Part shown: positions 25,001 to 41,340 of the stretch, piece after piece
Numbering within the stretch: the first letter of the stretch is position 1
Layout: every line of letters starts with the position of its first letter
Assembly (NCBI GenBank): GCA_913778085.1
Contig: CAJYXJ010000082.1
Span: forward strand, 1-41,340
DNA length: 41,340 bases
Reading direction: 5' to 3'
DNA from: an uncultured Chryseobacterium sp.
GTDB lineage: Bacteria > Bacteroidota > Bacteroidia > Flavobacteriales > Weeksellaceae
Notes under the pieces: generated by a model
Database searches by the model: none
What the model saw: only the letters and a program-made list of their open reading frames with translations
Told to the model about the DNA's origin: nothing
Program-made: the position numbers and the translations under genes

Positions 25001-25487
25001 CATTCATAGAACAAAGAAAGCCTTCATTACTTTTGTCAGTTTTAGGATGCACACCATAAACTGTTTTGTCCTTATCAGCCGGTTCTATAAATTCATACTT
25101 GCCCTCTTTAATGATCATCGACTGAAAATCATTTGAAGCCAAACTGAATCTCAGGTACTTGCCGGGATCATCAATCCCAACTCCTACATAAGATCCTAGT
25201 TGATACTGATCTGCCAGTTCTTTAACGACCACAGGGAAGCTGTAAACGGCAAATTTTTCAATTTTTCCTTCTAAAGTTGGCAAAGAGATGATAACGGGCT
25301 TTGCATTTTTGCCCGATTCCTGTGCATTTGCCAATTGAGACTTTAGTAAAGAAATGTCGAGAGAGTAATAGTTCTTAATTTCAGAACTCACCCTCGTCTT
25401 TTCCCCCCGAAATGTTGCAGGACTCCATTGTGCACTGGTAATCGCAAACAGAAAGAGGAAAAAGAAAGAAGTAAAAATTTTCTTCAT
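19047..25487 (-). CDS. Giant secreted reprolysin-like metalloprotease with 7 FN3 and 5 GEVED modules, T9SS substrate
   Basis: 2146 aa. Signal peptide (KKIFTSFFFLFLFAITSAQ), then a propeptide region. A zincin catalytic domain carries HEIGHQLGGNH (about 345-355, HExxHxxGxxH) and the Met-turn-like IMGYAGI. A ~200-aa linker follows, then modules in order FN3, GEVED, FN3, GEVED, FN3, GEVED, FN3, GEVED, FN3, FN3, FN3, GEVED. Each FN3 is recognisable by YEVQV..C.G, each GEVED by WIDFNRNG..GEVEDYxVK. The last ~75 residues (IYPNP..., ending KKFIKE) are a T9SS type A sorting domain, so the product should cross the outer membrane and be released or anchored. Modules are probably adhesive or substrate-binding. 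The 1015-aa gene upstream is a paralogue. Confidence 0.93.
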   Translation of the reverse strand: MKKIFTSFFFLFLFAITSAQWSPATFRGEKTRVSSEIKNYYSLDISLLKSQLANAQESGKNAKPVIISLPTLEGKIEKFAVYSFPVVVKELADQYQLGSYVGVGIDDPGKYLRFSLASNDFQSMIIKEGKYEFIEPADKDKTVYGVHPKTDKSNEGFLCSMNEDKLSKQEIANLYTAGKSFANQTTNFAKSSDKKYRTMRLAMSVTGEYTQFFGGTVANALVAINASLTRVNGVFEKDFALHLNLQNYPGVIYTDPATDPYSAAAAGVGGAWNTELQQTLTANVGNANYDIGHLFGASGGGGNAGCIGCVCIDPTSSVPKGKGSGFTSPADGIPQGDNFDIDYVAHEIGHQLGGNHTFSHALESAGVNVEPGSGSTIMGYAGITGANTDVQPHSDPYFHAVTITQVQNNLVNKTCDVETTITNNPPVIAALSTYNIPKGTAFVLTASATDPENDPMTYCWEEVDNASVTINKNNLGTTTSGASFRSFNPTTSPTRYFPKLSSVLAGVLNNSNNGWESVSTVARTTNFRVTVRDNNAVATQQQTQFANQQIVVGNDGPFKVTTTTAYNNGPTNVTWDVVNTTAAPYNVANVKIDYTTDNGVTWTVASASTANDGSEPLNLTGLTVGGTVKIRVSSIGNVFYAIGSATIASLLNCTGAAPTGISVSAITQTTATVSWTATANSTYVIRYRPVGSSTWVTVTSTTNSVNLIGLNDGIQYEVQVSTVCSGVQGPFSASTNFTTLGLTYCTMTSSNPTEEYISNVTVTPVGAGVMSNNSAGATYTDYSTTASALVNLVIGSTGNTVSVSKFWTGSVYSEAVGVWIDFNRNGVFEATEQVMNSAASTTTPVSATFNVPATAYSGPATTKMRVALQFSSSPVMCTSYTYGEVEDYAVKLIQPIACTSNAPLNLSVTNITATSAYVMWDPATGATYVLQYRPVGSTTWTTVPLTSNAYTINGLAESTSYEVQVAYVCSGVTGTYTAPYPFTTPAVTYCNITSTNNTNGYISNVTVAPTNSYVMSNTTGANSYTNYSADPAKLVTLVRSSTNNSISVSKSWLTTTQNSLAVGAWIDFNRNGIFETGERVINTTASTTTPITATFTVPATSYNGPLTLRMRVIFSTSTISDPCATVANGEIEDYAVKIIDLSPCTTAAPSPIVVSNVTASTALVSWINATGATYTLRYRTGTGTWTVINPATNPYTIQNLNASTTYEVQVATICGGTTGAWSGSVNFTTPASTYCTPTTTSVGNGFINNITVTGTNTPMMSNNSGSSTYTDYSNDATKIITLARSSTGNILSVGRTILSGTYSTYAWLDLNGDGVFDNNPIGTGGGERIMNLGYSSTTPVTATFAVPAWAYSGTNKVKMRVIVYYLTPANACSPLTSDGEVEDYQVKFIDIQPCTTAAPTGITVTNIAATTATVSWISSTGATYQVRWRTTNPVGAWTTSTVIAGNTFNIPGLTEQTAYEVQVSTICGGTQGPWSTSVPFTTTPIIYCNMTGTGTTDYISNVTMTSVNPGIPPMSNTSVQTNYISYTTPATLINLEIGSTGNKISVAKGGGQSDAVSAWIDFNRNGVFESTEQIMASAASTASPVTALFNVPSTAYNGPLTTTMRVVLKRSSAPVMCQNAVNGEVEDYAVKLRPCSATAPTNISFNTITHTSANITWTVPTGGLTFIVRYRVQGTSTWTEVPVSTLTGNPPLALTGLTPATTYEVQMAATCGTTAGTYTPSQTFTTRCDPTPPAVTVSNVTTNSAVITWAPVVPSATYVVRYRVTGTTLWTTINVTAAPLNTYTLTGLSPYTTYEVQVANICNGETTVNTWSNPKVFTTQRTCELPPPGLTITNLTPTTAVVVWDPFPGATYILRYRKVGIPSWTTVTSNTNTITLSGLLELTPYEMQVANVCSGTPGTYTLPYYFTTPTIVYCQMHATTASANYISKVTVTPNGKPVMTNASVASNYTDYTGVTSKFIELIQGSVDNKISIEKTTSSNAGVAVWIDFNRNGYFDINERILVSGPNNDQTVSGTFAVPADAFISLTDYKYVVMRVAMSKDAIPVNCTNFANGEVEDYTVRISKLPVPNPINQTDIMIYPNPVSTVLYVKNISKKANYKIYSAAGQLVSSGIILNNKIDVHALINGVYMIDIQDGTSVSAQKKFIKE

Positions 25488-25516
25488 AACTTTCTCAATA
25501 TATTCTATTAATTACA

Positions 25517-25524
25517 CAAAGCTA
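25517..25524 (-). promoter_or_regulatory. -7 element (TAGCTTTG) of the 2146-aa protease gene
   Basis: A perfect TAnnTTTG on the minus strand, 30 bases before the ATG at 25487. The 25488-25775 gap otherwise holds AT-rich sequence and the terminator of the upstream gene. Confidence 0.55.
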
Positions 25525-25722
25525 AACATTTTTTATTATTAATTTAAAAATACATTTATTTTTTTCCTACATATATCATAACAATTTAAATTATGTTTTT
25601 AAAATGATAGAAATTATACGCCTTTTTATCATCAATATTAATATCTCACATTTTAGAATTATTTACCTTATTTTGATGATAAATGCGACGCTGTAAAAAG
25701 GAATTCACCTTATTTCAAACAA

Positions 25723-25750
25723 AAAATCCTCAGGTTTCCCCGAGGATTTT
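25723..25750 (-). terminator. Rho-independent terminator of the 1015-aa protease gene
   Basis: AAAATCCTC pairs with GAGGATTTT around a 10-base loop that can pair further (GG/CC). On the minus strand TT follows. It lies 26 bases past the stop at 25776. Confidence 0.75.
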
Positions 25751-25775
25751 ATATCAAATTGATGTTGCGTATTGC

Positions 25776-28700
25776 TTACTTCTTAATGAATTTGGAATTG
25801 AATGTATCTTTTCCTTTGTCTTCAATAGAAATTACATATCCTCCTTTAATCAATTCAGAAACATTAATCTGTCCGCCACTGATATTTCCTTGTTTTACCA
25901 GTTGACCGGCAGCACTGTAAATTTTGTACGTTGCCTTGTCTGATACTTTGGTAATGTTAAGGATATCTGATACCGGATTCGGATAAATCTGAATATCGTT
26001 TTTAGGACCTGCCACATCGTTTGTTGCTAAAACTGATGTTACCATCACATTATAGTCTTCAGTTTCTCCATAATAGAAATTAGTACCACATGCTAGAGAA
26101 GAAGGAATAGATGCACCATTATTATTTGTACCTGCATATATATAGACTATTCTCATTCTCAACGGCTGATTTTCTACTGCAGTGGAAGGTACGGTAACCG
26201 CTGAAGTATACTGAGTGGTGATCGTAGCCGATACCGGAGCATTCAATACTTTTTCAGAATCCTCAAATGTACCATTTCTGTTCCAGTCTATCCATACGGC
26301 AGCACCGTCATACGTATCCGGGCTCCCCACTACTACTGTCAAAGTATAAGGAGCAGCTCCTTTTACCAGGTTAATCTGTAATGCAGGATTCGCTGTATAA
26401 TTGGTATAGACAGAAGCCCCGGAAGCATTGCTTACATTGGACAAAGAAACATTTGATATATATTCACCTGTTGTAAGAACTGTAGAAGAATCACAATAAG
26501 TAACAGTTGAATAAGTTGTCACAGTAAAGTTTACGGATGCAGAATATGAACCGGTAGTACCTGAGCATACTGCAGCGACCTGTGCTTCATAAGTTCCCGC
26601 AGTTAAGCCGCTTACGTTTATTGCAGATCCTGAAGTAGTAACCTGTGTCCAGGTAGTGGCAGTAGTTTTCTTATACCGTACAATATAAGTAGTTGAAGTT
26701 CCTGAGTAAGGTGTCCAATAAATAGAAGCACCACCCAGTGAAGGAATTACTGTAAGACCTGAAGGCGCAGCACTGCTGCAAGGCGATAATGTAGTAAGCG
26801 CAACACTTCCGATTGCATAAAATACATTTCCAATAGAAGATATTCTTACTTTAATCGTAGTTCCATTCAATGAAGACGGGAAAGTAAAACTCTCAGAGCC
26901 ATCGTTTGGTGTTGAGGCAGAAAGCAGATTCCATGTACTACCATTGTTTGTTGTATATTCTACTTTAACGTTTGCAACATTATAAGGAGCAGCTGTTGTG
27001 TTTGCAACAGCCCAAGAAATAGGTGTAGGAGAACCGTTTGCTTCTGCTGCTGTAGTGGTTACTTTAAATGGTCCATTATCTCCTACCACAATAGTTTGGG
27101 TAGCATATTGCGTTTGTTGCTGAAGTGCATTGGCATTATTATCTCTTACCGTTACAGCAAAGTTAGTCGTTCTCGGAACCATTGATACAGATTCCCAGGT
27201 ATTACTGCTATTGTTTAGCACTCCGCTTAATACAGAAGAAAGAGCCGGGAAGTATCTGGTAGGGCTGGTGGACGGTATAGCAGAACGGAAAGAGGCTCCC
27301 GTTGAAGTTGTCCCTAAATTGTTTTTATTAATTGTTGTACTTGCATCATCTATTTCTTCCCAGGAATAGGTCATTGGATCACCTTGTGCATCCGTAGCAG
27401 AAGCGGTTAAAACGAAAGCCGTTCCTTTAGGAATGTTATAGGTTGGAAGAGCGGCAATTACAGGAGGATCATTTGCAACTGAATTCTCAACATCACACGT
27501 TGTAGTTTGTAAGTTTTCTAATATCTGGCCGATGCTTGCCACATGAAAATATGCATCCGAGTGGGCCTGAACATCAGTAGTTGTTCCTGTAATTCCGGCA
27601 TATCCCATAATGGTAGATCCAGAACCCGGCTCCATATTAACTCCGGAACCTTCAAGACTGTGAGAAAATGTATGGTTACCTCCCAATTGATGTCCCATCT
27701 CGTGAGCAACATAATCTATATCAAAGTTATCTCCCTGTGGAACATTATTGGCGGGTGAAGTAAAGCCCGAACCTTTGTAAGCTTCTGGCGAACCGTTTAC
27801 ATCAGTTGTCATATCGTTGCTGCAAACGCATCCGATACATCCTGCATTACCTCCACCTCCGGAAGCCCCGAATAAATGTCCTATATCAAAATTTGCTTCT
27901 CCAACATTTGTGTGCAAAACATTCATTAATTCTCCGTTCCAGGCACCGGCAACTCCGGCACTGGCAGCAGAGTAAGGGTCTGTAGCGCTATTGGTATAAA
28001 TAACTCCGGGGAAACTTTGAAGATTCAAATGTAAAGCAAAATCTTTCTCGAATACTCCATTCACTCTGGTTAAAGTAGCATTTATCGCAACAAGAGCTAC
28101 TGCTCTCTTCTGATCATCGGTAGCGGTGGCAGGTAGGTTGGCCTGAGTCGCAAAATATTGCGTATATTCCCCAGTAACAGACATTGCCAGTCTCATAGTC
28201 CGATACTTCTTATCGGAAGATTTAGAAAAATCACCTGGCTGATTGGTAAAAGAACTACCTTTTTTCAACAATCCGGCAATCTGTTTTTTCTGGGATGCCG
28301 TTTCATCGGTACTGCATAAAAATGCATCACCCTTTGTTTTGTTTGTTTTAGGATGCACCTCATAAACAGTTCTATCTCCAATTTGTGGCTCAATGAACTC
28401 ATAACCTCCGTCTCCGATGATCATCGACTGAAAATCATTAGGTGCCAATGAAAATCTTAAATATTTTGAGGGATCATCTACTCCCACTCCTACATAAGAA
28501 CCTAACTGATATTGCTCTGCCAGTTCTTTTACTACAACAGGAAAACTGTATACGGAGAATTTCTCTATTTTTCCGTTAAGGGTGGGTAGAGAAATAATCA
28601 CCGGTTTTGCATTAGCTCCCATCTCCTGCGCATTTCTTAGCTGAGATCTTAGTAGGTCCAAATCTAATTTGTAATACCCGTTAGTTCTTACATTAGATTT

Positions 28701-28823
28701 ACTTACATTAAATTCCGCACTTTTAGTCTTATTGTCTTCTTTTTTAAAGGAAGTAGGTGTCCATTGGCCGAACACAGTACCCCCTAAAGCCGTTAACAGT
28801 AAGGCAGTAAAAAATTTACTCAT
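25776..28823 (-). CDS. Secreted reprolysin-like metalloprotease with FN3 and GEVED domains, T9SS substrate
   Basis: 1015 aa from the ATG at 28823 (MSKFFTALLLTALGGTVFGQ, a good signal peptide); an in-frame start at 28922 would add 33 residues that spoil the signal and cross the promoter. The zincin domain with HEMGHQLGGNH lies at about 374-384, followed by the same linker as in the paralogue, then one FN3 (about 690-775), one GEVED (ending GETEDYNVMV), and a T9SS type A sorting domain (IQIYPNPVSDIL to the end). The N-terminal ~680 residues are closely similar to the 2146-aa neighbour. It is expected outside the cell, degrading proteins. It is a separate transcript with its own promoter element and terminator. 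Confidence 0.93.
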   Translation of the reverse strand: MSKFFTALLLTALGGTVFGQWTPTSFKKEDNKTKSAEFNVSKSNVRTNGYYKLDLDLLRSQLRNAQEMGANAKPVIISLPTLNGKIEKFSVYSFPVVVKELAEQYQLGSYVGVGVDDPSKYLRFSLAPNDFQSMIIGDGGYEFIEPQIGDRTVYEVHPKTNKTKGDAFLCSTDETASQKKQIAGLLKKGSSFTNQPGDFSKSSDKKYRTMRLAMSVTGEYTQYFATQANLPATATDDQKRAVALVAINATLTRVNGVFEKDFALHLNLQSFPGVIYTNSATDPYSAASAGVAGAWNGELMNVLHTNVGEANFDIGHLFGASGGGGNAGCIGCVCSNDMTTDVNGSPEAYKGSGFTSPANNVPQGDNFDIDYVAHEMGHQLGGNHTFSHSLEGSGVNMEPGSGSTIMGYAGITGTTTDVQAHSDAYFHVASIGQILENLQTTTCDVENSVANDPPVIAALPTYNIPKGTAFVLTASATDAQGDPMTYSWEEIDDASTTINKNNLGTTSTGASFRSAIPSTSPTRYFPALSSVLSGVLNNSSNTWESVSMVPRTTNFAVTVRDNNANALQQQTQYATQTIVVGDNGPFKVTTTAAEANGSPTPISWAVANTTAAPYNVANVKVEYTTNNGSTWNLLSASTPNDGSESFTFPSSLNGTTIKVRISSIGNVFYAIGSVALTTLSPCSSAAPSGLTVIPSLGGASIYWTPYSGTSTTYIVRYKKTTATTWTQVTTSGSAINVSGLTAGTYEAQVAAVCSGTTGSYSASVNFTVTTYSTVTYCDSSTVLTTGEYISNVSLSNVSNASGASVYTNYTANPALQINLVKGAAPYTLTVVVGSPDTYDGAAVWIDWNRNGTFEDSEKVLNAPVSATITTQYTSAVTVPSTAVENQPLRMRIVYIYAGTNNNGASIPSSLACGTNFYYGETEDYNVMVTSVLATNDVAGPKNDIQIYPNPVSDILNITKVSDKATYKIYSAAGQLVKQGNISGGQINVSELIKGGYVISIEDKGKDTFNSKFIKK

Positions 28824-28848
28824 AACATTTTTAATTAAATTTACCTGC

Positions 28849-28856
28849 CAAATATA
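28849..28856 (-). promoter_or_regulatory. -7 element (TATATTTG)
   Basis: A perfect TAnnTTTG on the minus strand, 26 bases before the ATG at 28823. It supports the chosen start. Confidence 0.6.
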
Positions 28857-28930
28857 ACCATTTTGCGCTATAAATATTATATTCTTAATCTTTTTAACTA
28901 AAAAAAATAATTTTGACAGCATAATTTTAA

Positions 28931-28976
28931 AAAAAACAAATAATCCTCAGACAAGTCTGAGGATTATTTGTTTTTT
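28931..28976 (-). terminator. Very strong (bidirectional) terminator
   Basis: A 21-bp perfect stem (arms 28931-28951 and 28956-28976, core ATAATCCTCAGA/TCTGAGGATTAT) with the 4-base loop CAAG and A/T runs at both ends. It lies 22 bases past the stop of the M43 protease gene and upstream of the next promoter. Confidence 0.9.
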
Positions 28977-28997
28977 TTAATTTCTATTAAATAAATG

Positions 28998-31037
28998 TTA
29001 ATTTTTAATAAACTTGATGCTTTCGGAAAGCTTTCCATCCTTAATTGTAATAATGTAAGCTCCTTTCACCAATTCTGAAACTCTTACTTGATTATTACTG
29101 ATATTTCCACCTTTTACCAACTGTCCTACTGTATTGTGAATTTCAAACGTTGCTTTACTGGAAACCTTGGTAATGTTTAGGATATCATTTGTAGGATTAG
29201 GATAAATATTAAGACCATCCTTTTTACTAAGTTCTTCTGTACCAAGAACTACAGTGGTGAATCCCTTTGATGCGTAAGAATTAATGTTGGTATCGCCGTG
29301 ATAAATCGTTTGTCCACCCGGAGTTGAAAGATCAACATATCCTCCGTCAGTCAATCCGTCACCATATGCATCGGATATTGTAAATACATAACACCCTGGT
29401 GCCAGCGACCATGTCTGGGATATAATTGTTGGCAGTGGAGTAGTTGATGTTGGATTTGAAACATCAGGATATGGCCCACCATATTTTACAATTTGCCCTG
29501 CACTATTTTTAAGAGTCCACATTGTTTCCGATCCGTAATAATCTAATTGCAGATTAAAATTAACGGTTGTAGCAGATGGAATATATTGTGGAGCTATTGG
29601 CTTATTATACATACCATCAATCACATTATTTGTAGTTCTTTGATCAGTAGTTCCGTTAACTGATGTAATTGATGCAGAAACAGGAGCTCCAGTAGGAACA
29701 GATCCCGAAACCGGGATACTGATAATACTGTATTTATCCTGAGCTAGATTTCCCGTCCAACTATATGTCTGGGCAGTTCCTCCATTAATAATGTAATTGA
29801 TTGTTGCTGATGTAAGATTAGCCGTACCTCTGTTATATAATGAAAAACGAACTACTCCACCACCACAGCTTTCTGAACTACAACCTCCATCCATTTTTAA
29901 CTCGGCATCATTCGGAAAAAGGGTAATGGCCTGATCGGCAATAGATGATTTCAGTTGCATTCTTCTTGGCGAAACATCCATCACAGTTCTGATTCTTGTT
30001 TTTTGATCATTTGTAAAAATATTCATACATAGATCCGGTGTATAATCCATATAATTTCTTACCATTTCCATAATTGATGGATCATTACAACTTGCAATAT
30101 TCGTATTACATACATAGTTTGCCGTATGTGCTGTAGGAGTATCTGCACAATAGTCAGTACCGCAAGTAGCATCACCCCAAATATGCCTAAGCCCTAAAAA
30201 ATGCCCTACTTCGTGGGTCATCGTTCTTCCTTTGTCATATGGAGCGGAAAGTAAAAAATTATTATTGGTATCATAATCGCGGCTTCCAAAAGTTGCAAAA
30301 TTAGCAACTACACCATCTGTGCTTGCTGCTCCGCCATTTGTTCCAAGCCCTTGCAACCCTGAAGAACTAGGAAACTGAGCATAACCCAATAAAGAAGCGT
30401 CAGCAAAGCTAACACTCCACATATTCATATATACATTGGGGTTCCAGATTGTTTGTGGTTTTACGAATCCTTCTATACTTTCTCTAGTCCAATTGTCTTG
30501 ACAAAGATTCACTCTGTCTATTCCATTAGTAGGATTTCCAAAAGGATCAACCTTAGCCAATGCAAACTGGATTTGAACATCTGCTCCTACAGCATTCGTA
30601 TTATATCCAGGAGTATTGAACATTTTTCGGAAATCATTATTCATGACTGTAATTTGAGACATAACCTGCTCATCTCTAATATTAGGAGCTGCTCCAAGAT
30701 TTTGCCCGCTGTGAATAACATGTACTACTACTGGAATAGTAATGATACTTCCATTCTGGGATTTGTTATTTTTTGCATTTTCAATTAATGGTGCCAACCA
30801 AGTTTCAAACTGACTTTCAGTCATTCTACCTGGATATTTCTCCTGTAAATATTTTTCATATTCAACAGTAGAACACCTTTCAAATCCATTCGCCTTTGCG
30901 ATTTCTTCAGGCGATGCTTTTAAAAATCGCGGTTCTTTAGCAATTCCCTTATCTTTTTTAATCTGTTGTGCGTTTAATATTCCTAAACTCATCAATGATA
31001 TTAAAAAAAATGATTTCAAAAATGTAGATTTTTGCAT
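28998..31037 (-). CDS. Secreted M43 pappalysin-like zinc metalloprotease, T9SS substrate
   Basis: 679 aa. Signal peptide (FLKSFFLISLMSLGILNAQ). The catalytic domain has the extended zinc motif HEVGHFLGLRH (about 275-285) followed by GDATCGTDYCADTP, and later the Met-turn region MEMVRNYMDYTPDLCMNIFT, as in M43 cytophagalysins. Residues ~375-600 are beta-rich, with a CSSESCGGGVVRFSLYNRG segment and a pre-peptidase-like domain (MWTLKNSAGQIV.. SDAYGDGL). The C terminus (LNIYPNPTNDILNIT to the end) is a T9SS type A sorting domain close to that of the neighbouring proteases. It is expected extracellular, with a nutritional or virulence-like role as protease. Confidence 0.93.
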   Translation of the reverse strand: MQKSTFLKSFFLISLMSLGILNAQQIKKDKGIAKEPRFLKASPEEIAKANGFERCSTVEYEKYLQEKYPGRMTESQFETWLAPLIENAKNNKSQNGSIITIPVVVHVIHSGQNLGAAPNIRDEQVMSQITVMNNDFRKMFNTPGYNTNAVGADVQIQFALAKVDPFGNPTNGIDRVNLCQDNWTRESIEGFVKPQTIWNPNVYMNMWSVSFADASLLGYAQFPSSSGLQGLGTNGGAASTDGVVANFATFGSRDYDTNNNFLLSAPYDKGRTMTHEVGHFLGLRHIWGDATCGTDYCADTPTAHTANYVCNTNIASCNDPSIMEMVRNYMDYTPDLCMNIFTNDQKTRIRTVMDVSPRRMQLKSSIADQAITLFPNDAELKMDGGCSSESCGGGVVRFSLYNRGTANLTSATINYIINGGTAQTYSWTGNLAQDKYSIISIPVSGSVPTGAPVSASITSVNGTTDQRTTNNVIDGMYNKPIAPQYIPSATTVNFNLQLDYYGSETMWTLKNSAGQIVKYGGPYPDVSNPTSTTPLPTIISQTWSLAPGCYVFTISDAYGDGLTDGGYVDLSTPGGQTIYHGDTNINSYASKGFTTVVLGTEELSKKDGLNIYPNPTNDILNITKVSSKATFEIHNTVGQLVKGGNISNNQVRVSELVKGAYIITIKDGKLSESIKFIKN

Positions 31038-34389: not shown

Positions 34390-35940
34390 TTATTTTGTCT
34401 GTGCAGGCTGAGGGTTTGCCTGTTGCTGAGGTGCCTGTTGGGCGGCCGCTGCAGGATCCATTCCCATACCTCCCGGCTGTAGCTGAACATTTGGATTTAC
34501 TTTCGGAGCAGAAAGCCCGGTTTGCTTATCCAGAACGGTTACCAATTCAGGATCTCCTAAGTTGAAGAATGGCTTACTGGCAATTTTACCGTCTTTATCC
34601 ACAATAATAAAGCAAGGAAGCTTAAATCCGTAAACACCGTATTTCTTGGCAATATCAGAATTTAATCCGTTTTCTGCATATACATTTGTTCCTGCGATTC
34701 CTTTCAATAAAGAGCTGCTTGTTTTCACAAACTGATCTTTCGTATCGTCCACATTTACAAAAACAAAGTTCATTTTGGATTTATAGAAGTTCACTACTTC
34801 TTTCAATACAGGAACTGTTGCCTCTCCGATGTAAGGATTCCATGAGGCATAAAAAGTAAGCATATATGGTTTTCCTTTATTTTCAGAAAGATTATAAGAT
34901 TTTCCGTCTGCCTTTACCAATGCCGCTTCAGGAGCCGCTTCACCGATTTTGAAACCGTTGATGGCAAACTGGATTTTCTTCAGGTCTTCTTTAATGGTAT
35001 TATCCTTAATATCAGAATCGATAATCTTCTTGATTTTCTCCACTGTTTTTTCAGGAGCACCAGGATGGATATCAGACTGTGCCATTACGAATGCCAATAA
35101 ATAGTCTTTAGCAGTCTGGGAAAGGTCTTTCTGGTTTTTATTTAAATATTCAGCAAATAATTCTGAAGTCGTAAAATCCGTTTTCCCGGCTGTTTTTGCC
35201 TGAGCGAATTTCTGGAAATCAGGACTCATCTTGGTTAAAAGGTATTCTCTGTATAAAGGATGCTCTTTTACCAGGACATCTTTGTTTTCCTCCAGCTTGT
35301 TAGCAAAATCTGTAAAAGCTTTAGTTACTTTAAATGAAGGATTTCCCATTTGCTTGTGGCTAAGCTCGTACTGGTTAAGAATCGTAAGCAAAGTACTGGA
35401 AAGGTCATTTTTCTTCCAGGTTACCACTTCACTGTCAGGGCTGAATTTCTTAGCGTTTTCATCAATGTTTTTATTCACATCCGCCTGTACTTTTTCAATC
35501 CCTTTAAGGAAGGTTTTTTCATCTTTGGTCATCAGCTCATTCATGTTTACGGTCTGAGCGTAGGTAGCAAGATACTTCTGGGTAGCCATAAAGAAGTCGT
35601 TGTTCTTTTTAGCATCTCCGGTAATGGTATACTCGGTAGGGAAAGTCATGGCATTTCCTGAAATTTCAAGCTTCTGGCCGCCTTTCAGATAAATTAAATT
35701 TCTTTTTCCTCCGTAAGAGACCATGTACATTCCGCTTTTCGGAGCTTCAAAGTTCCCTGCAAACGTACCGTCCTTATTTATTCCGATATTAATTAATGGT
35801 AAAGTGGCTACTCCCGAAGCTTCGATGAACTCGATTCTTTCCAGCGGAGAACCGCCTGTCACCTTTCCTTTTACTTCTACTTTTTTAGAGCAAGACATCG
35901 CAAAAACCGCGATGATAAACAATAAAAGATATTTTTTCAT
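34390..35940 (-). CDS. Thioredoxin-fold (TlpA/AhpC-like) lipoprotein without CXXC
   Basis: 516 aa from ATG 35940 (MKKYLLLFIIAVFAMSCSKK, a lipoprotein signal with AMSC lipobox); the open frame to 36021 adds 27 residues that spoil the signal. The N-terminal region ~20-130 (VEVKGKVTGGSPLERIEFIEA) resembles the DUF4369-type beta domain often joined to thioredoxin domains. Residues ~355-480 form the thioredoxin-like domain (GEAAPEAALVKADGKSYNL.., LTFYASWNPYIGEATVPVLKE, FKLPCFIIVDKDG). The usual WCxxC is WNPYIG, so no dithiol is present. The tail is rich in Q, P, A and M. It is probably periplasmic or surface-anchored. Confidence 0.85.
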   Translation of the reverse strand: MKKYLLLFIIAVFAMSCSKKVEVKGKVTGGSPLERIEFIEASGVATLPLINIGINKDGTFAGNFEAPKSGMYMVSYGGKRNLIYLKGGQKLEISGNAMTFPTEYTITGDAKKNNDFFMATQKYLATYAQTVNMNELMTKDEKTFLKGIEKVQADVNKNIDENAKKFSPDSEVVTWKKNDLSSTLLTILNQYELSHKQMGNPSFKVTKAFTDFANKLEENKDVLVKEHPLYREYLLTKMSPDFQKFAQAKTAGKTDFTTSELFAEYLNKNQKDLSQTAKDYLLAFVMAQSDIHPGAPEKTVEKIKKIIDSDIKDNTIKEDLKKIQFAINGFKIGEAAPEAALVKADGKSYNLSENKGKPYMLTFYASWNPYIGEATVPVLKEVVNFYKSKMNFVFVNVDDTKDQFVKTSSSLLKGIAGTNVYAENGLNSDIAKKYGVYGFKLPCFIIVDKDGKIASKPFFNLGDPELVTVLDKQTGLSAPKVNPNVQLQPGGMGMDPAAAAQQAPQQQANPQPAQTK

Positions 35941-35966: not shown

Positions 35967-36034
35967 GTTTTTTTAGGTACAGAAAAAAATTTAATTGAAC
36001 AGTTTTATTACTTTTTAACAAAACACGTTATAAA

Positions 36035-38128
36035 CTACTGTTTTATCAGCTTTTTATCTTTTAAATGAAAAATATGATTAGAAGTTATTTCAAGACTTTC
36101 CAAATTATGACTAATAATTAATATGATTTTATCTTTCTTAATTTTTTCAATTAAATTATAAATGAATTTTCTATTATCCACATCCAGTGAGGATGTCGGC
36201 TCGTCTAAGATTAAAAACTCAGGATTATGATAAAGAGCTCTCATCCAGCCCAATAATTGTTTCTGTCCACCAGATAAATTTACGCCTTCTTCTCCTACAA
36301 TAGTCATTATCCCTTGTGGAAGAGTATCTATAAATTTTTCAAAGCCTAAATTAACTAAACTTTGCAATTTTATCTGATCAATTTCTTCATCTAAAACAAT
36401 ATTTTCTAATACAGTTGTATTAAATAATTGAATAGTTTGTGGTACAGTAGAAATTTTATTTCTCCAACTAGAAATTAAAACTTCTTCTAGATATATATTA
36501 TTATTGATGATAATATTTCCACTTTCTTGTAAATAGTTTTTTCTCAGAATTTCAGTGAAAGTAGTTTTTCCACATCCACTTTCTCCTAAAATACAAGTAA
36601 TTTCACCCTTTCTTAATGTCAAATTAATTTCTTCCAGTAGCTTACTACGTCCTTTGAATCTGAAGTCTAACTGCTGAACTTTTATTACATCAATATTCTT
36701 AACTTCTTTTCCGTCTATTTTTTCTTTTGATATTGATGCATATTCAAACATTCTGTCAAAAGCTATTTTTGCTTCCTGTAGTGGTATACTGACCAACGCT
36801 AAGTTTGTAATGGAACCCAATAATGAGCTCGTGATTCCTATAATAGCCATCAATTCCCCAACTTTAATTTCCTTAATTAATACATTATAAGACGAAAAGC
36901 TTAGTATTATAACCAGAAAGAAAACCAAAGCTAATGCGGAATATAGTGTAATTTTTATATTTATTTTACCAAGATTAAATATTTTATTTTGAAAATTTTC
37001 AAAAACTGAAGTTTCTTTTTTCAGGAACAAATCCTGCTTTTCAAAACCCTTTACAACATCTATACCTCTTATAATATCAATGTAATTTGCTTCATTAATC
37101 CCATAATTTTGCATTACCTCTTTTTGCGAAGTAATAATATTTTTGTTAAATCTAAAGATGATATAAAAAACAATAGGAGATACAAGCAAACAAACCAAGG
37201 CAAGTTTCCATGAATAATAAAAAAGAAAACCTATAGAAATTAAAATTCCGATAATATCTACAGTAGTATTAGTAATTAAATGTTTTATTACGTTTTGTAT
37301 CCTCTGTGTATCATTTAGCCTTGCAACAAAATCTCCTATCTTCCTTGTATCAAAAAAAAGTTTGGGAAGATAAAGTAAAGAACTAAAAAAAGACTTATTA
37401 ACTCTCTGATTAAATCCTCGAGCTTGTTTAATAATATAAAAATCTCTTAAAGATTGTATTATAACTCTTGCAATTAATAGAAAACTTAAAAAACCAATGC
37501 TCAAAAAAAGCACACTAACTTTTCTTTTTGGTAAAATATCATCTATTAATTTTTGAGAAAAAATAGACATTGCCATACCCAATAAAGTGGTAACAATTCC
37601 TAAAAATATTATAGTATAAATAGATTCTTGATCTTGTCTTATAAGATCTAAAAACCATTTTCTCTTTTTCGAGGTATTGATTTCTTTTTTCTCAAAATTA
37701 TCATTTGGAAAAAGCGTTAAACAAGTTTTAGAAACCCAAACGTCTTCCAATTGTTTTCTATCCCAATACTCTAAGCCTTTGGCAGGATCTCCGATAAGAA
37801 ATTTATTATCTCTAAAATAATCTCTAGAATAAAAGACAACATAATGTTCGTATTTATTTTCTAATGTTATATGCAAAATTACAGGTTGCTTATGCTCAAT
37901 TAAGGCTTCTACATCTGCTTCGCAGCCCTCTGCATCGAATCCGATTTCTTTAGCACACTGGTACAGTCCTAAAAGGGTAGTTCCAGTCTTACCAGTTCCA
38001 CTTTTCTCTCTTAAAGTTTCCAATGAAATATCCCCGCCATAATATCTTACCAAAGATTGTAGAGAACCCACTCCGCAATCTGTATGGTCTTTTTGGAGAG
38101 AGAAGGTTTTTCTAATGTTTTTCATCAA
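36035..38128 (-). CDS. Peptidase C39-containing ABC exporter (double-glycine peptide processing and export)
   Basis: 697 aa. The N-terminal C39 peptidase (1-~140) has the oxyanion Gln Q12, the nucleophile C18 (QKDHTDCGVGS), H95 (YEHYVVFY) and D114 (LIGDPAKG). It cleaves after GG leaders. An ABC transporter membrane domain with about six helices (~165-440) and an ATPase follow: Walker A GESGCGKTT (~515), signature LSGGQKQ (~618), Walker B LILDEPTSSLD (~639), His switch IISHN. It is the expected partner of the GG-leader peptide at 40296-40478. The start overlaps the thioredoxin-like gene upstream by 17 bases. No HlyD adaptor is nearby. No clear terminator follows. Confidence 0.93.
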   Translation of the reverse strand: MMKNIRKTFSLQKDHTDCGVGSLQSLVRYYGGDISLETLREKSGTGKTGTTLLGLYQCAKEIGFDAEGCEADVEALIEHKQPVILHITLENKYEHYVVFYSRDYFRDNKFLIGDPAKGLEYWDRKQLEDVWVSKTCLTLFPNDNFEKKEINTSKKRKWFLDLIRQDQESIYTIIFLGIVTTLLGMAMSIFSQKLIDDILPKRKVSVLFLSIGFLSFLLIARVIIQSLRDFYIIKQARGFNQRVNKSFFSSLLYLPKLFFDTRKIGDFVARLNDTQRIQNVIKHLITNTTVDIIGILISIGFLFYYSWKLALVCLLVSPIVFYIIFRFNKNIITSQKEVMQNYGINEANYIDIIRGIDVVKGFEKQDLFLKKETSVFENFQNKIFNLGKINIKITLYSALALVFFLVIILSFSSYNVLIKEIKVGELMAIIGITSSLLGSITNLALVSIPLQEAKIAFDRMFEYASISKEKIDGKEVKNIDVIKVQQLDFRFKGRSKLLEEINLTLRKGEITCILGESGCGKTTFTEILRKNYLQESGNIIINNNIYLEEVLISSWRNKISTVPQTIQLFNTTVLENIVLDEEIDQIKLQSLVNLGFEKFIDTLPQGIMTIVGEEGVNLSGGQKQLLGWMRALYHNPEFLILDEPTSSLDVDNRKFIYNLIEKIKKDKIILIISHNLESLEITSNHIFHLKDKKLIKQ

Positions 38129-38636
38129 AATGTCTTAGCAGCTTTGTAAGTTTAATGGCTCCTGAATTCCTATTTATAAGATGATTCTTTTCATCATATA
38201 CTAAAAAATAGGGAACACTTTTCATTTGAAATCTCCTGTAAAAATTTGCCTTATCATCATAGCACCAATGAATATTTTTATAATTATGTAGTTTATACTT
38301 TTCCGCAAACGTTTTTATCTGCGCCAAAGGTTCACTGGCAATCCAAATCCATTCTGTGTTTTTATAATTCTTATACATTACACTTAGCTCCTCCGCTTCT
38401 GCCTGACAAAAATGGCAATCTGGGCTGAAATAAATAATGACTTTATGATTTTCGCTATTTAGATTTTGAGATGTAAAAGAACTTCCATCAATAGTTTGTA
38501 GTGTAAATGAAGGAATATTTTCTAATTGTTTGATTTTTTCTTTTTTTTCTTGAAAATCAAAAAACAGATAAACAATCATTCCTATCACCAAAACAGGAAT
38601 AAGAATTGCAAATATTTTTAAATATTTATTTTTCAT
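38112..38636 (-). CDS. Membrane-anchored thioredoxin-like protein (CHFC)
   Basis: 174 aa. An N-terminal hydrophobic anchor (IFAILIPVLVIGMIVYLFF, ~9-27) keeps the domain on the periplasmic side. Then ENIPSFTLQTIDGSSF and VIIYFSPDCHFCQAEAEELS place the redox cysteines at about 74 and 77 in a TlpA/AhpC-like fold, with the cis-Pro loop in KSVPYFLVYDE. It shares 17 bases with the exporter gene, so they are translationally linked. Since the precursor core holds two cysteines, it may make or reduce a disulfide in the exported peptide (inference). CHFC differs from the usual WCGPC. Confidence 0.85.
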   Translation of the reverse strand: MKNKYLKIFAILIPVLVIGMIVYLFFDFQEKKEKIKQLENIPSFTLQTIDGSSFTSQNLNSENHKVIIYFSPDCHFCQAEAEELSVMYKNYKNTEWIWIASEPLAQIKTFAEKYKLHNYKNIHWCYDDKANFYRRFQMKSVPYFLVYDEKNHLINRNSGAIKLTKLLRHFDEKH

Positions 38637-38641
38637 TAATA

Positions 38642-39241
38642 CTAATATTGCGCATTAAGAATTAAAAAACATACTGTTGCTGTCCAAAACAATAAACCTA
38701 CTCCATAAGTTATGGAAACCAAACCAAATGATTTTAAATAGCTTATCTTTTCTTCCAAAAATTCTCTCACACCCCAAGCAAGAAGCACCCAATAAAACAA
38801 TTCAAAAATATTTATCAATTGTAAAGGATATGCTAACCATTTTTCTGTAGAAATATTTTCTTTAAAATTTAATAATGACAATGGGTAGTATGTCTGTACA
38901 TCTTCTAAGTTATACTCTATATTAATCCAATAGAAGTAAACAAACTTGTAAAAACCTCCGATTATGAAAACAGATTCCGCAAGAAGAGCAAGAAAAAGAA
39001 AATCGCTAAATTTTATCTGGTCAATTTTAGGAAGATCAAATAGCTTTAAAAAATTTAGACAGAAAGCTACTAATAACACTTTAACACCTATAAAAAGAGG
39101 AGTTATAACGTATCCCAACCACCACCATTTTTTCTGGCTATCCATATAGTTTTGTACAACTGCACTTGGATAATCTTTGGTAAGGAAATCTAATATTTTA
39201 GAATCTGTAGAAATATATGTCTTATCTAAATATGCTAACAA
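38642..39241 (-). CDS. Four-helix membrane protein of the peptide-export locus
   Basis: 199 aa, no signal peptide, four predicted helices at about 43-66 (WWWLGYVITPLFIGVKVLLVAF), 82-108, 138-158 and 172-196. An aromatic-rich loop (KFVYFYWINIEYNLEDVQTYYPLS) lies between helices 2 and 3. No motif was recognised. It sits 5 bases upstream of the thioredoxin-like gene in the same operon and may help export or act as an immunity or integral maturation factor. No function can be assigned. It is AT-rich like the rest of the locus. Confidence 0.75.
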   Translation of the reverse strand: MLAYLDKTYISTDSKILDFLTKDYPSAVVQNYMDSQKKWWWLGYVITPLFIGVKVLLVAFCLNFLKLFDLPKIDQIKFSDFLFLALLAESVFIIGGFYKFVYFYWINIEYNLEDVQTYYPLSLLNFKENISTEKWLAYPLQLINIFELFYWVLLAWGVREFLEEKISYLKSFGLVSITYGVGLLFWTATVCFLILNAQY

Positions 39242-39264
39242 TAAATAACATAGGACAATGCCTA

Positions 39265-39284
39265 TGAAAAGTAAAAATTTTTCA
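39265..39284. promoter_or_regulatory. Inverted TGAAAA / TTTTCA element upstream of the membrane protein gene
   Basis: TGAAAA, 8 bases, TTTTCA, 24 bases before the ATG at 39241. The same hexamer pair occurs near the precursor promoter (40502-40518), with a different spacing. Adjacent CATAGG/CCTATG (39250-39266) forms a small hairpin. A role as regulator-binding site is inferred. Confidence 0.3.
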
Positions 39285-39313
39285 TCAATGATAATACAGA
39301 AGAGTTATGATGC

Positions 39314-39562
39314 TTAAAAAAGATTGTACGAGAAAGAAAGAAAAATAAGAACTATAACAAAAATGAATAAACCTCTGCATTTTGGCACAAACGAAATACC
39401 TATAAAAATAGCCGTAGTTATACCTATAATAAGAGCGGTCCGATTGCTTTCTGAATTTATCCAATTTCTATTAAAAGCAAGAGTAATTAGTATACTTAAG
39501 AATATGCCTATAATTAAGCTTAAATTATTTTGAGTTGTAAATGTTTTAATTTTTTCTTTCAT
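39314..39562 (-). CDS. Small membrane protein, paralogue of the neighbour, immunity candidate
   Basis: 82 aa from ATG 39562 (MKEKIKTFTTQNNLSL); an upstream ATG at 39622 is in frame, but the 20 residues it would add are encoded by a terminator hairpin, so the shorter start is preferred. Three hydrophobic helices (~14-30, ~41-57, ~63-79) are separated by polar turns (NRNWINSESNR). Length and layout match the neighbouring 82-aa protein, including an F-N-R/K loop before the second helix. Small multi-helix proteins beside bacteriocin genes often provide self-immunity; this is inference from context. Confidence 0.65.
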   Translation of the reverse strand: MKEKIKTFTTQNNLSLIIGIFLSILITLAFNRNWINSESNRTALIIGITTAIFIGISFVPKCRGLFIFVIVLIFLSFSYNLF

Positions 39563-39581
39563 AAGTGTGTTTTTTAAAAAG

Positions 39582-39613
39582 AAAGAGAGAGAGATTATAA
39601 AACCTCTCTCTTT
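39582..39613 (-). terminator. Terminator or attenuator between the two small membrane protein genes
   Basis: AAAGAGAGAG/CTCTCTCTTT, a perfect 10-bp stem with a 12-base loop. On the minus strand it is followed by CTTTTTAAAAA. It begins 9 bases after the stop of the upstream gene, so part of the transcripts may end here. Confidence 0.7.
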
Positions 39614-39622
39614 TATTTTCAT

Positions 39623-39871
39623 TTAAAGTAAATTATCCCTGTAAAGAATATAAAATAATGTAAAAGCAATTAGCAAACTCGCTCTATAGTTTTTTTTGAA
39701 TGATACCAATACACACAAACCTATTAAAATACCAATAATAGCTTGATTTCTTTGTGAAATATTATCCGAATTAACACTAGCTAAAAAAATTAACACACTG
39801 GCAATTACAGAAACAACAACAGAGTAAAATATATTTTTCTTTTGTAAGAAAATACTATTTAGCTTTTCCAT
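39623..39871 (-). CDS. Small membrane protein, immunity candidate
   Basis: 82 aa with three hydrophobic helices (~13-33 FYSVVVSVIASVLIFLASV, ~44-58 AIIGILIGLCVLVSF, ~63-78). Loops are SNSDNISQRNQ-like and KKNYR. It resembles the 39314-39562 product in length, helix layout and the N-terminal MEKLNSIFLQKKN/MKEKIKTFTTQNN pattern, suggesting a local duplication. The stop is adjacent to an in-frame ATG at 39622 and is followed by a hairpin. It lies 135 bases downstream of the 40007-40279 gene. Immunity or a regulatory role is inferred from context only. Confidence 0.65.
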   Translation of the reverse strand: MEKLNSIFLQKKNIFYSVVVSVIASVLIFLASVNSDNISQRNQAIIGILIGLCVLVSFKKNYRASLLIAFTLFYILYRDNLL

Positions 39872-40006
39872 TAATACTTTTTTTTTATTCGTTATGTTGA
39901 TTACTTAGACATTCTGCTAAAGATGTAATATTCCATGGTGAAAATAGTATTTTTAAGTGAAAACTATACTATGAGCAACACATCTTTAAATAATTTGACC
40001 ACTAAT

Positions 40007-40279
40007 TCATTTATTAAGAATCACTTGCTTTAAATTGATTCCATTTTCTGAAGTTAATGTTTTTAAGTCAATAATTATTTTTTCAATTTTAATTTTCGTA
40101 AAAAGGTACGAAATAAGTCCATACCTATGATTAATCCAATATGATAATTTATCGCCATCAAGTTTGAGTTTAATAAAAAAGATAGAACTCTCAAGTTGAT
40201 AATTAGAATTTTTGTGCGAAAACTTCAAACTATACTTTAAACTTATCTCTTGTAATATTATATCAATTGTTTTAATCAT
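40007..40279 (-). CDS. 90-aa protein directly behind the peptide precursor, immunity candidate
   Basis: 90 aa from ATG 40279 (MIKTIDIILQEIS); the open frame extends to 40336 inside the precursor gene but the extra 19 residues are unlikely. It is basic and polar with many Ile and Lys, no signal peptide and no clear membrane helix. The C terminus (FTKIKIEKIIIDLKTLTS) looks amphipathic. No family was recognised. It begins 16 bases after the precursor stop, the usual position of class II bacteriocin immunity genes, which are also small and basic. That makes immunity the leading but unproven guess. Confidence 0.65.
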   Translation of the reverse strand: MIKTIDIILQEISLKYSLKFSHKNSNYQLESSIFFIKLKLDGDKLSYWINHRYGLISYLFTKIKIEKIIIDLKTLTSENGINLKQVILNK

Positions 40280-40295
40280 AAATATGGAACTTACT

Positions 40296-40478
40296 TTATT
40301 TACATTTTGGATTCCAAATATAAGCACTTGCAGCACCTATTGCGTATCCCCATGGTCCTGCAATCATCCCTCCGGCAACAGCTGATAACCCCATAGAAGC
40401 AAGACATTCTGTAGATAATCTAGAGATTTCATCACCTCCCTGCAAATTTTCCATTTGCGAAACATTTAATTTTTTCAT
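40296..40478 (-). CDS. Double-glycine-leader peptide precursor (bacteriocin-like)
   Basis: 60 aa. The leader MKKLNVSQMENLQGG matches the GG-leader pattern (L at -12, M at -7, L at -4, GG at -2/-1) recognised by C39 peptidases. The predicted mature peptide is 45 aa starting DEISRLSTEC. It has a glycine- and alanine-rich hydrophobic core (SAVAGGMIAGPWGYAIGAA) with GxxxG/AxxxG-type spacing, typical of pore-forming class II bacteriocins, and two cysteines (10 and 44) that could form a disulfide. The divergent XRE regulator and the exporter in the same block support the call. Activity and target are unknown; a signalling peptide is the alternative. Confidence 0.82.
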   Translation of the reverse strand: MKKLNVSQMENLQGGDEISRLSTECLASMGLSAVAGGMIAGPWGYAIGAASAYIWNPKCK

Positions 40479-40501
40479 GACATTTATAATATTTATTCAT
40501 A

Positions 40502-40518
40502 GTTTTCACTTTGAAAAC
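40502..40518. promoter_or_regulatory. Palindrome GTTTTCA-CTT-TGAAAAC, probable operator
   Basis: A perfect 7-base inverted repeat with a 3-base spacer, 24 bases before the precursor ATG and 111 bases before the divergent XRE ATG. The 12-mer ATAGTTTTCACT (40499-40510) reappears inverted at 39956-39967 upstream of the small membrane protein genes. Binding by the divergent XRE protein is a natural guess. Confidence 0.45.
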
Positions 40519-40601
40519 CTGAAACAAATTTGTAAAAATATTCTCAAATAAAATATTCTATATTAGAATAAAATGATGTTTTAGAGATCAAAATTATTTT
40601 T

Positions 40602-40609
40602 TATTTTTG
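40602..40609 (+). promoter_or_regulatory. -7 element (TATTTTTG) of the XRE gene
   Basis: A perfect TAnnTTTG 20 bases before the ATG at 40629. A T-run at 40579-40582, 19 bases upstream, may serve as the -33 region. Confidence 0.55.
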
Positions 40610-40628
40610 CAAGACACAATGAGAAAAA

Positions 40629-40868
40629 ATGACTGACAAAGATCTAGGATTTAAGCTTAGGAAACTCCGTGAAGAAAAAGGAATATCACAACAAACATTA
40701 GCTATAGATTTGGATATTTCTCAGAGTAAAATTTCTAAAATCGAAAATGGAACAGAAAAGATAACTGTTCCTTATTTTCTTAAAGTTTTGACTTATTTCT
40801 CTTTATCGCCAAAAGAAATTGTAGAATTCTTCGATCAAAAAGAAAAACCTTTAAACTCCAATAATTAA
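40629..40868 (+). CDS. XRE-family HTH regulator divergent from the peptide gene
   Basis: 79 aa, almost only a Cro/C1-type helix-turn-helix (FKLRKLREEKGISQQTLAIDLD, then ISQSKISKIENGTEKITVPYF, residues ~6-62), with a short polar tail. It is transcribed away from the peptide precursor from a 150-base shared intergenic region, the usual arrangement for a local regulator. Its likely operator is the palindrome at 40502-40518. Whether it represses or activates the peptide operon cannot be read from the sequence. Confidence 0.88.
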   Translation: MTDKDLGFKLRKLREEKGISQQTLAIDLDISQSKISKIENGTEKITVPYFLKVLTYFSLSPKEIVEFFDQKEKPLNSNN

Positions 40869-41133: not shown

Positions 41134-41340
41134 ATGGCTGAAAATTCAAAAAAAATCGTTGTTGGAGTTGTAAAAGTCTGGATGTAATTTCTTGGGGAAA
41201 GAAAAACGGTAATCGTCGTTTTAAATGTAAAAAATGCGGCATTTATTTTACTTCCGAAAATAAATCGGTGAGCCTGAAAAACAAAGAAATTTGGTTCAAA
41301 AAATGGATTGTCGGAAAACAGACTTATGAGCAGATTTCAG
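41134..41340 (+). CDS. Transposase N terminus (zinc-ribbon type), partial and apparently frameshifted
   Basis: From 41142 the plus-strand frame is open to the window edge and reads a zinc ribbon (CWSCKSLDVISWGKKNGNRR, then FKCKKCGIYF) and the start of a helix-turn-helix-like region (EIWFKKWIVGKQTYEQIS). This is the N-terminal layout of transposases annotated as IS256-family variant Zn-binding type or similar; the family label is tentative. That frame has no ATG. The only nearby ATG (41134) is in another frame and reads MAENSKK before the run of eight A at 41148-41155, where a -1 shift joins the two. The C-terminal catalytic part lies outside the window. Confidence 0.7.

What the first reader, a model, noticed from the sequence alone, without database searches (positions are those of the whole stretch)
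36035..40868. Compact peptide-bacteriocin-like locus with a C39 exporter, thioredoxin partner and several immunity candidates
In one AT-rich block stand a GG-leader precursor, a 90-aa protein behind it, two small three-helix membrane proteins, a four-helix membrane protein, a CHFC thioredoxin-like protein, a C39-ABC exporter and a divergent XRE regulator. GG-leader peptides with C39 exporters are well known in Gram-positives. Such loci in Flavobacteriia are far less studied, and this combination of small membrane genes with a dedicated thioredoxin is not one I recognise as characterised.
Basis: partly seen in the sequence, partly recalled or inferred. Interest (0 to 1): 0.85.

Follow-up and report, generated by a model that had tools for sequence, protein, structure and literature searches.

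The report
Bacteroidetocin-type peptide export locus in Chryseobacterium
A small gene cluster in a Chryseobacterium genome makes, trims and exports a short cysteine-containing peptide that most likely kills rival bacteria; its core machinery matches the published bacteroidetocin gene set, but here it serves a different peptide family with candidate self-protection genes and a predicted control switch.

Summary
In detail: a 60-aa GG-leader precursor, a 90-aa protein, two paralogous small membrane proteins, a larger membrane protein (M4), a CHFC thioredoxin, a C39-ABC exporter and a divergent XRE gene lie where stated. The cluster is conserved. M4, thioredoxin and C39-ABC stand together, with GG precursors, in 16 of 16 Chryseobacterium loci that have the thioredoxin (16 of 174 genomes), and in relatives across Bacteroidota. 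It matches the four-gene bacteroidetocin region of Coyne et al. 2019 (five-TM protein, GG peptide, thiol oxidoreductase, C39-ABC), shown there by deletion and by expression in E. coli. What differs: peptides with two cysteines near the ends of a hydrophobic Gly-rich stretch, two or more per locus in 12 of 16; small candidate immunity genes; and, in five genomes, a conserved palindrome 75-90 nt before the precursor, beside an XRE gene. No recurrent membrane-fusion protein was found. In this window the start of M4 is out of frame relative to 15 relatives, so this copy may be impaired. Killing, disulfide, immunity and the outer-membrane step are inferred, not shown. Verdict: real; a new variant of a known kind.

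The parts
40296..40478 (-). precursor peptide, 60 aa: 15-aa GG leader MKKLNVSQMENLQGG and a 45-aa mature part with two Cys (positions 10 and 44)
   Evidence: the same leader letter for letter in 7 of 16 genus loci, the window included
40007..40279 (-). P90, 90-aa protein without TM segment directly behind the precursor; candidate cognate immunity protein
   Evidence: no family above cut-off; no TM; 51% over 47 aa directly behind the related precursor in G089/L058, where the frame then breaks
39623..39871 (-). M3b, 82-aa small membrane protein; candidate immunity
   Evidence: two TM segments by hydropathy, a third by eye; paralogue of M3a
39314..39571 (-). M3a, 85-aa membrane protein with three TM segments (frame open to an ATG at 39622, 102 aa); candidate immunity
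   Evidence: 29% identical to M3b; in 169 genus genomes only weak matches (E 7e-4 to 7e-3) in 3 others
38642..39241 (-). M4, conserved membrane protein (five long helices in the model of a relative); the first helix region is out of frame here
38112..38636 (-). TRX, thioredoxin-like thiol-disulfide oxidoreductase with one N-terminal TM segment, CHFC at 74-77
36035..38128 (-). C39 peptidase / ABC exporter (PCAT)
40629..40868 (+). 79-aa XRE-family regulator, divergent
40554..40570 (.). palindrome TATTCTA-TAT-TAGAATA, predicted XRE operator, 75 nt before the precursor ATG
34390..35940 (-). flanking TlpA-like protein (543 aa if read from the TTG at 36021); marks the site, not part of the cassette

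Best explanation
A class II bacteriocin (bacteroidetocin-type) production cassette. The ribosomal precursor is recognised by its 15-aa leader. The C39 domain of the exporter cuts after Gly-Gly and the ABC part moves the 45-aa peptide across the inner membrane. The membrane-anchored thioredoxin forms or proofreads a single Cys10-Cys44 disulfide, and M4, a five-helix partner protein, assists maturation or export. The mature peptide is a hydrophobic, Gly-rich, probably helical peptide that most likely kills related Bacteroidota. P90 (directly behind the precursor here and in one other genome) and/or the M3a/M3b pair protect the producer. A divergent XRE protein controls the operon through the palindrome at 40554-40570. 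Shown here: gene content, co-occurrence, conserved redox motif, conserved leader, conserved palindrome. Inferred: disulfide, killing, immunity, control, outer-membrane exit. The out-of-frame start of M4 suggests that this copy may be weakened or silent.
For: M4-TRX-ABC with GG precursors in 16 of 16 genus loci, each also with at least one small membrane ORF before M4. The two precursor-only genomes keep exporter remnants: L059, 151 aa at 64%; L058, 63 aa at 59%. 29 of 31 precursors have exactly two Cys after the leader, 2 have three. CxxC and one Pro (cis-Pro, recalled label) invariant in 19 of 19 TRX rows. M4, TRX and ABC lie in the same stretch in 26 of 43 more distant M4 loci read. Same gene set as the experimentally tested bacteroidetocin region (PMC6671954). 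L209 has the published order TM - 4-Cys peptide - thiol - ABC; its TM protein matches the phylum-wide M4 profile at E 1.2e-18 and the profile of Chryseobacterium and near relatives by hhalign at E 1.8e-5, probability 78. Palindrome 75-90 nt before 6 precursors in 5 genomes.
Against: No killing, expression or mass data. M4 is out of frame at its start in this window. No named bacteroidetocin sequence was in hand, so homology of M4 to the published TM protein rests on gene order, features and profile links. The published producers kill themselves, whereas immunity candidates sit here. No outer-membrane route was found beside the cassette. M3a/M3b have no convincing relatives. 17 of 43 distant M4 loci read lack the complete triad, and seven of these (L164-L170) carry M4-like proteins with neither TRX nor ABC beside them. 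A LanC-family gene lies near the cassette on the Flammeovirga plasmid L153.
Confidence: 0.8

Rival explanations
1. A signalling system: the exported GG peptide is a pheromone sensed through the XRE regulator, not a toxin.
For: XRE regulator and predicted operator beside the precursor; GG peptides can be signals; regulator-like proteins also flank other genus loci.
Against: No receptor or histidine kinase domain among the window cassette proteins. Mature parts diverge more than leaders (median identity 27% against 53%, 25 peptides) and different precursor sets have different small proteins beside them, as for toxin and immunity sets. One search shows only a helix-turn-helix in the XRE protein.
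Confidence: 0.1
2. A modified RiPP cluster whose tailoring enzyme lies elsewhere; TRX and M4 only serve export.
For: Another C39 locus of this genome (L060) has several GG-type small ORFs, and L060 and L062 have HlyD-family genes. On the Flammeovirga plasmid a LanC-family gene lies about 1.2 kb behind the exporter.
Against: No tailoring-enzyme domain in the window cassette. Among 75 large neighbours (4 kb either side) in the 15 other genus loci, none of the 25 families matched by most members is a radical-SAM, LanB/LanC, YcaO or ATP-grasp family; 50 further families, each in at most 2 members, were not shown. The exporter is only 26-28% identical to those of L060-L062.
Confidence: 0.07
3. A decayed, non-functional copy: the precursor is a relic and M4 is broken.
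For: M4 start out of frame; broken or partial relatives exist (L058, L059; L098, L100, L102).
Against: Exporter, TRX, precursor and XRE frames are open with their motifs kept; a sequencing error cannot be excluded.
Confidence: 0.3

Closest known systems
Bacteroidetocin regions (proposed class IIf), Coyne et al. 2019, PMC6671954 (named sections read)
   Same: 15-aa GG leader, mature peptide of similar size, five-TM protein, thiol oxidoreductase, C39-ABC; no membrane-fusion protein among the four genes that suffice in E. coli
   Different: Two Cys rather than the four of bacteroidetocins A and B; Gly-rich hydrophobic mature part; two or more precursors in most genus loci; small candidate immunity genes; divergent XRE regulator with conserved palindrome. 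In the paper no immunity was found and producers inhibit themselves
Gallocin A (class IIb), Proutiere et al. 2023, PMC10100652 (passages seen)
   Same: GG-leader peptides each with two Cys forming one disulfide; a thioredoxin-domain protein needed for activity; small immunity peptide encoded with the pair
   Different: Streptococcus, surface protein BlpT, BlpAB exporter, 23-aa leaders; M4 not mentioned in the passages. The window locus has one precursor only
Pediocin PA-1 operon (pedABCD)
   Same: Structural peptide, immunity, accessory protein and ABC transporter genes together (start of the abstract of PMC5465099; the thiol role of PedC is recalled)
   Different: Gram-positive, class IIa motif, no M4 (recalled)
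Colicin V type export (C39-ABC + membrane-fusion protein + TolC)
   Same: C39-ABC and GG leader in a Gram-negative
   Different: No membrane-fusion or TolC gene in the window cassette and no HlyD family among the 25 most frequent families of neighbours; such a set does exist on the Phocaeicola plasmid L151

Membership tests
bacteroidetocin region | 15-16 aa leader ending in GG | tested here: met
   15 aa
bacteroidetocin region | mature peptide of 42-53 aa with at least two Cys | tested here: met
   45 aa, two Cys
bacteroidetocin region | four Cys as in bacteroidetocins A and B | tested here: not met
   two Cys; 29 of 31 genus peptides have two, 2 have three. The authors require only two for the wider family
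bacteroidetocin region | gene for an unknown five-TM protein | tested here: inconclusive
   model of a relative has five long helices, mean pLDDT 72; family reaches the TM protein of a region with published order; the window copy lacks an in-frame start for the first helix; no named sequence was available
bacteroidetocin region | thiol oxidoreductase gene | tested here: met
   CHFC thioredoxin
bacteroidetocin region | C39-ABC exporter | tested here: met
bacteroidetocin region | sequence similarity of the peptide to bacteroidetocins A/B | not tested
bacteroidetocin region | kills Bacteroidota through BamA | not testable with these tools
   needs experiment; BamA is from the title of PMC8546649
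gallocin-like class IIb | two complementary peptides | tested here: not met
   one precursor in the window; two or more in 12 of 16 genus loci
gallocin-like class IIb | helical hairpin with one disulfide | tested here: inconclusive
   two helices 15-40 and 42-55 predicted at mean pLDDT 60
colicin V type I export | membrane-fusion protein beside the exporter | tested here: not met
   none in the window cassette; tblastn with three HlyD-type queries hits, apart from the HlyD genes of L060 and L062 themselves, only L113 among 73 loci (L113 has an HlyD-family gene); not among the 25 most frequent families of 75 neighbours

The most novel reading that the evidence does not exclude
M4, the thioredoxin and the C39-ABC form one phylum-wide Bacteroidota secretion platform that has been loaded with two unlike peptide classes: four-Cys bacteroidetocins without immunity, and two-Cys, often paired, hairpin bacteriocins with dedicated immunity genes. 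The second class would be a Gram-negative counterpart of disulfide-hairpin two-peptide bacteriocins. Precursor-immunity sets are exchanged by recombination at the 5' end of M4, leaving M4 stubs, and some are controlled by an XRE/palindrome switch.
Probability: 0.45. Interest if true: 0.7.

Novelty: new variant of a known kind. Interest (0 to 1): 0.5.

Why it matters
It extends a recently described Bacteroidetes toxin platform to Flavobacteriia with different peptides and likely immunity genes, gives dozens of testable candidates, and makes two open points testable: what the five-TM protein does, and how such peptides cross the outer membrane without a membrane-fusion protein coded beside them.

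Tried and rejected
Considered and rejected: M4 as a precursor-specific immunity protein (62-78% identical to the window copy while mature peptides differ). M4 as a member of a known family: no family matches more than 2 of 18 members in Pfam or NCBIfam; one member hits DUF6161 at E 3.2e-4; best PDB sequence match E 0.7; Foldseek best E 4.6. One distant relative, L165, hits Yip1 at E 5.9e-4, below cut-off. Known anti-phage system: PADLOC hits only for XRE among 7 proteins.

Led nowhere: finding a named bacteroidetocin region (plasmid searches; L151 is a different system with HlyD and TolC; M4 not found in L151 or L152). Relatives of M3a/M3b (weak matches in 3 other genomes of 169). The precursor model is too weak for use (mean pLDDT 60). 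The single palindrome in the genome is not in itself improbable: the reversed control pattern occurs twice per strand; its position and conservation are the argument.

Limits: genome samples overlap. Not all hits were fetched: 20 of 26 new genomes, 7 of 9. Peptides were found by regular expression; at least one in L049 (61 aa) was missed, and the looser pattern gave at least one false row (L204). The 100-aa protein behind the L044 precursor resembles P90 only by eye. One search showed 25 of 75 families.
Full report
Check of the observation. The ORF list and sequence confirm every gene named, at the stated places. Pfam finds Peptidase_C39, ABC_membrane and ABC_tran in the 697-aa exporter, AhpC-TSA in the 174-aa thioredoxin, HTH domains in the 79-aa divergent protein, and a sub-threshold Bacteriocin_IIc match (E 6.8e-4) in the 60-aa precursor; the three membrane proteins and the 90-aa protein match nothing above cut-off. 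The C39 and ABC motifs are intact and the closest solved relatives are bacteriocin transporters such as 4ry2. M3a and M3b are paralogues.

Conservation. In 174 genomes of the genus the precursor is found in 16 and the thioredoxin in 16, 14 of them shared; the hypergeometric probability is 9e-17 without correction for relatedness. I fetched all 15 other thioredoxin loci plus three further precursor loci. M4, TRX and ABC lie side by side in 15 of 15, and in the window. The two thioredoxin genomes without a scored precursor match do have GG peptides (L042, L050). The two precursor genomes without the thioredoxin keep exporter remnants: L059, 151 aa at 64%, and L058, 63 aa at 59%. The genus is Chryseobacterium: record titles match the contig lengths of eight of these genomes.

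Range. M4 is found in 19 of 297 genomes of the family (7 of 33 genera), 15 of 395 of the order, 32 of 392 of the phylum and 24 of 396 of the class with a wider profile; these samples overlap. Of 43 distant M4 loci read (all of those, 20 of 26 new genomes, 7 of 9, and one Flammeovirga plasmid), 26 hold M4, TRX and ABC in the stretch: 6 of 8, 6 of 7, 10 of 21, 4 of 7. In a few, other genes lie between them (L118, L119, L159, L172), and in L098, L100 and L154 the exporter is in two pieces. The other 17 lack TRX, lack both, or are M4-like proteins standing alone (L164-L170). The thioredoxin keeps CxxC and one proline in 19 of 19 rows.

Peptides. In the 16 genus loci a regular expression finds 31 precursors; 29 have exactly two Cys after the leader, 2 have three, and 12 of 16 loci have two or more precursors. 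Leaders agree better than mature parts (median identity 53% against 27%, 25 peptides); the window's leader occurs letter for letter in 7 of 16 loci, itself included. The window has a single precursor. Each of the 16 loci has at least one small ORF with predicted membrane segments before M4, the usual place of an immunity gene; a few of those counted in L046, L049 and L053 are precursors read from an earlier start. The model of the window precursor gives two helices at low confidence.

M4. Relatives share a conserved start and a first hydrophobic helix; the model of the C. lathyri protein has five long helices, with residues 133-157 unreliable. In the window the corresponding N-terminus lies in a frame without ATG/GTG/TTG before 39241, and an ATG near 39285 is in another frame. 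Intact starts exist in the 15 relatives aligned. Truncated 5' copies of M4 lie behind precursor and small membrane-protein genes in L102 and L103, and a partial copy lies downstream of the exporter in L207, behind another precursor. This suggests exchange of precursor-immunity sets by recombination at the M4 start, an inference.

Regulation. A palindrome TATTCYA-n-TRGAATA lies between XRE and precursor. It occurs once in the 4.63-Mb genome (the reversed control pattern occurs twice per strand) and in 15 of 210 loci held, all from the same five genomes. In these it lies 75-90 nt before six precursor starts. The XRE proteins of L057, L098 and L099 are 53-63% identical to the window's over 41-71 aa; L102 keeps a 26-aa piece at 73%. 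L101, with an XRE at 42%, lacks the palindrome.

Export. HlyD-type proteins accompany two other C39 exporters of this genome (L060, L062; Pfam HlyD_3), which are only 26-28% identical to this one. None lies in the window cassette. tblastn with three such queries over 73 loci hits only L060, L062 and L113. Among 75 large neighbours of the 15 other genus loci no HlyD family is among the 25 families matched by most members; 50 families, each in at most 2 members, were not shown. A recurrent coded partner is thus unlikely; a single case is not excluded.

Site. In the window, L057, L059 and L103 (another genus) the cassette stands next to the same TlpA-like and tRNA-uracil-methyltransferase-like genes, with an iron-sulfur protein (SdhB, recalled name; domains) on the other side in the three where that side is present; 4 of 26 stretches searched. 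The window contig ends there. The other genus loci lie elsewhere, so movement or rearrangement, as well as decay, must have occurred.

Comparison. Coyne et al. 2019 (sections 7, 8, 14, 15 and 27 read) define the bacteroidetocin region as a five-TM protein, a GG-leader peptide, a thiol oxidoreductase and a C39-ABC. Deletion of the TM, thiol or peptide gene attenuates activity, the four genes suffice in E. coli, and no immunity was found. Two loci here, L209 and L120, carry four-Cys peptides starting KFWG beside M4 relatives; L209 has the full published order, L120 lacks TRX. The window family is thus most likely the same platform with other peptides. Gallocin A (passages) is the nearest model for the peptides: two Cys and one disulfide each, and a thioredoxin-domain protein needed for activity.

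Print. Searches of the held open-access library listed no paper on such loci in Flavobacteriia, judged by titles and abstract starts. Three listings were capped: 20 of 58, 15 of 121, 10 of 123. The 35 published regions of Coyne et al. may include some; their supplement could not be read.

Verdict. Real and conserved; a variant of the bacteroidetocin system with different peptides, probable immunity and a probable switch. Killing, disulfide, immunity and outer-membrane passage remain to be shown.

Noticed in passing
window 38642-39300: M4 start region out of frame relative to 15 relatives; sequencing error, decay or unusual start.
   Followed up: partly
L102 6728-6895 and 8554-8775; L103 8907-9077; L207 8955-9278: Partial 5' copies of M4 near precursor and small-protein genes, suggesting recombination of precursor-immunity sets.
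   Followed up: partly
L042, L043, L044, L045, L048, L051, L052, L058: A 450-580 aa protein related to the 579-aa protein of L052 (31-72% identity) lies beside the cassette in 8 of 19 genus stretches. 8 of 75 neighbours hit HTH_18 (members not named there), so it may be an alternative regulator where the XRE gene is absent.
   Followed up: partly
L060, L062 (other contigs of the same genome): Other C39-ABC loci with HlyD-family proteins; L060 also has several GG-type small ORFs rich in Cys, a separate RiPP-like system.
   Followed up: no
L164-L170: M4-like proteins standing alone without TRX or ABC; one (L165) weakly hits Yip1, a possible origin of M4.
   Followed up: partly
L153 7336-8907: LanC-family gene behind the M4-TRX-ABC cassette on a Flammeovirga pectinis plasmid; such cassettes may also serve modified peptides.
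   Followed up: no
window 19047-31037: Three neighbouring secreted metallopeptidases (two reprolysin-like with GEVED domains, one Peptidase_M43), each with a Por secretion tail.
   Followed up: no
window 41134-41340: Start of a transposase-like frame at the contig end, judged by eye.
   Followed up: no
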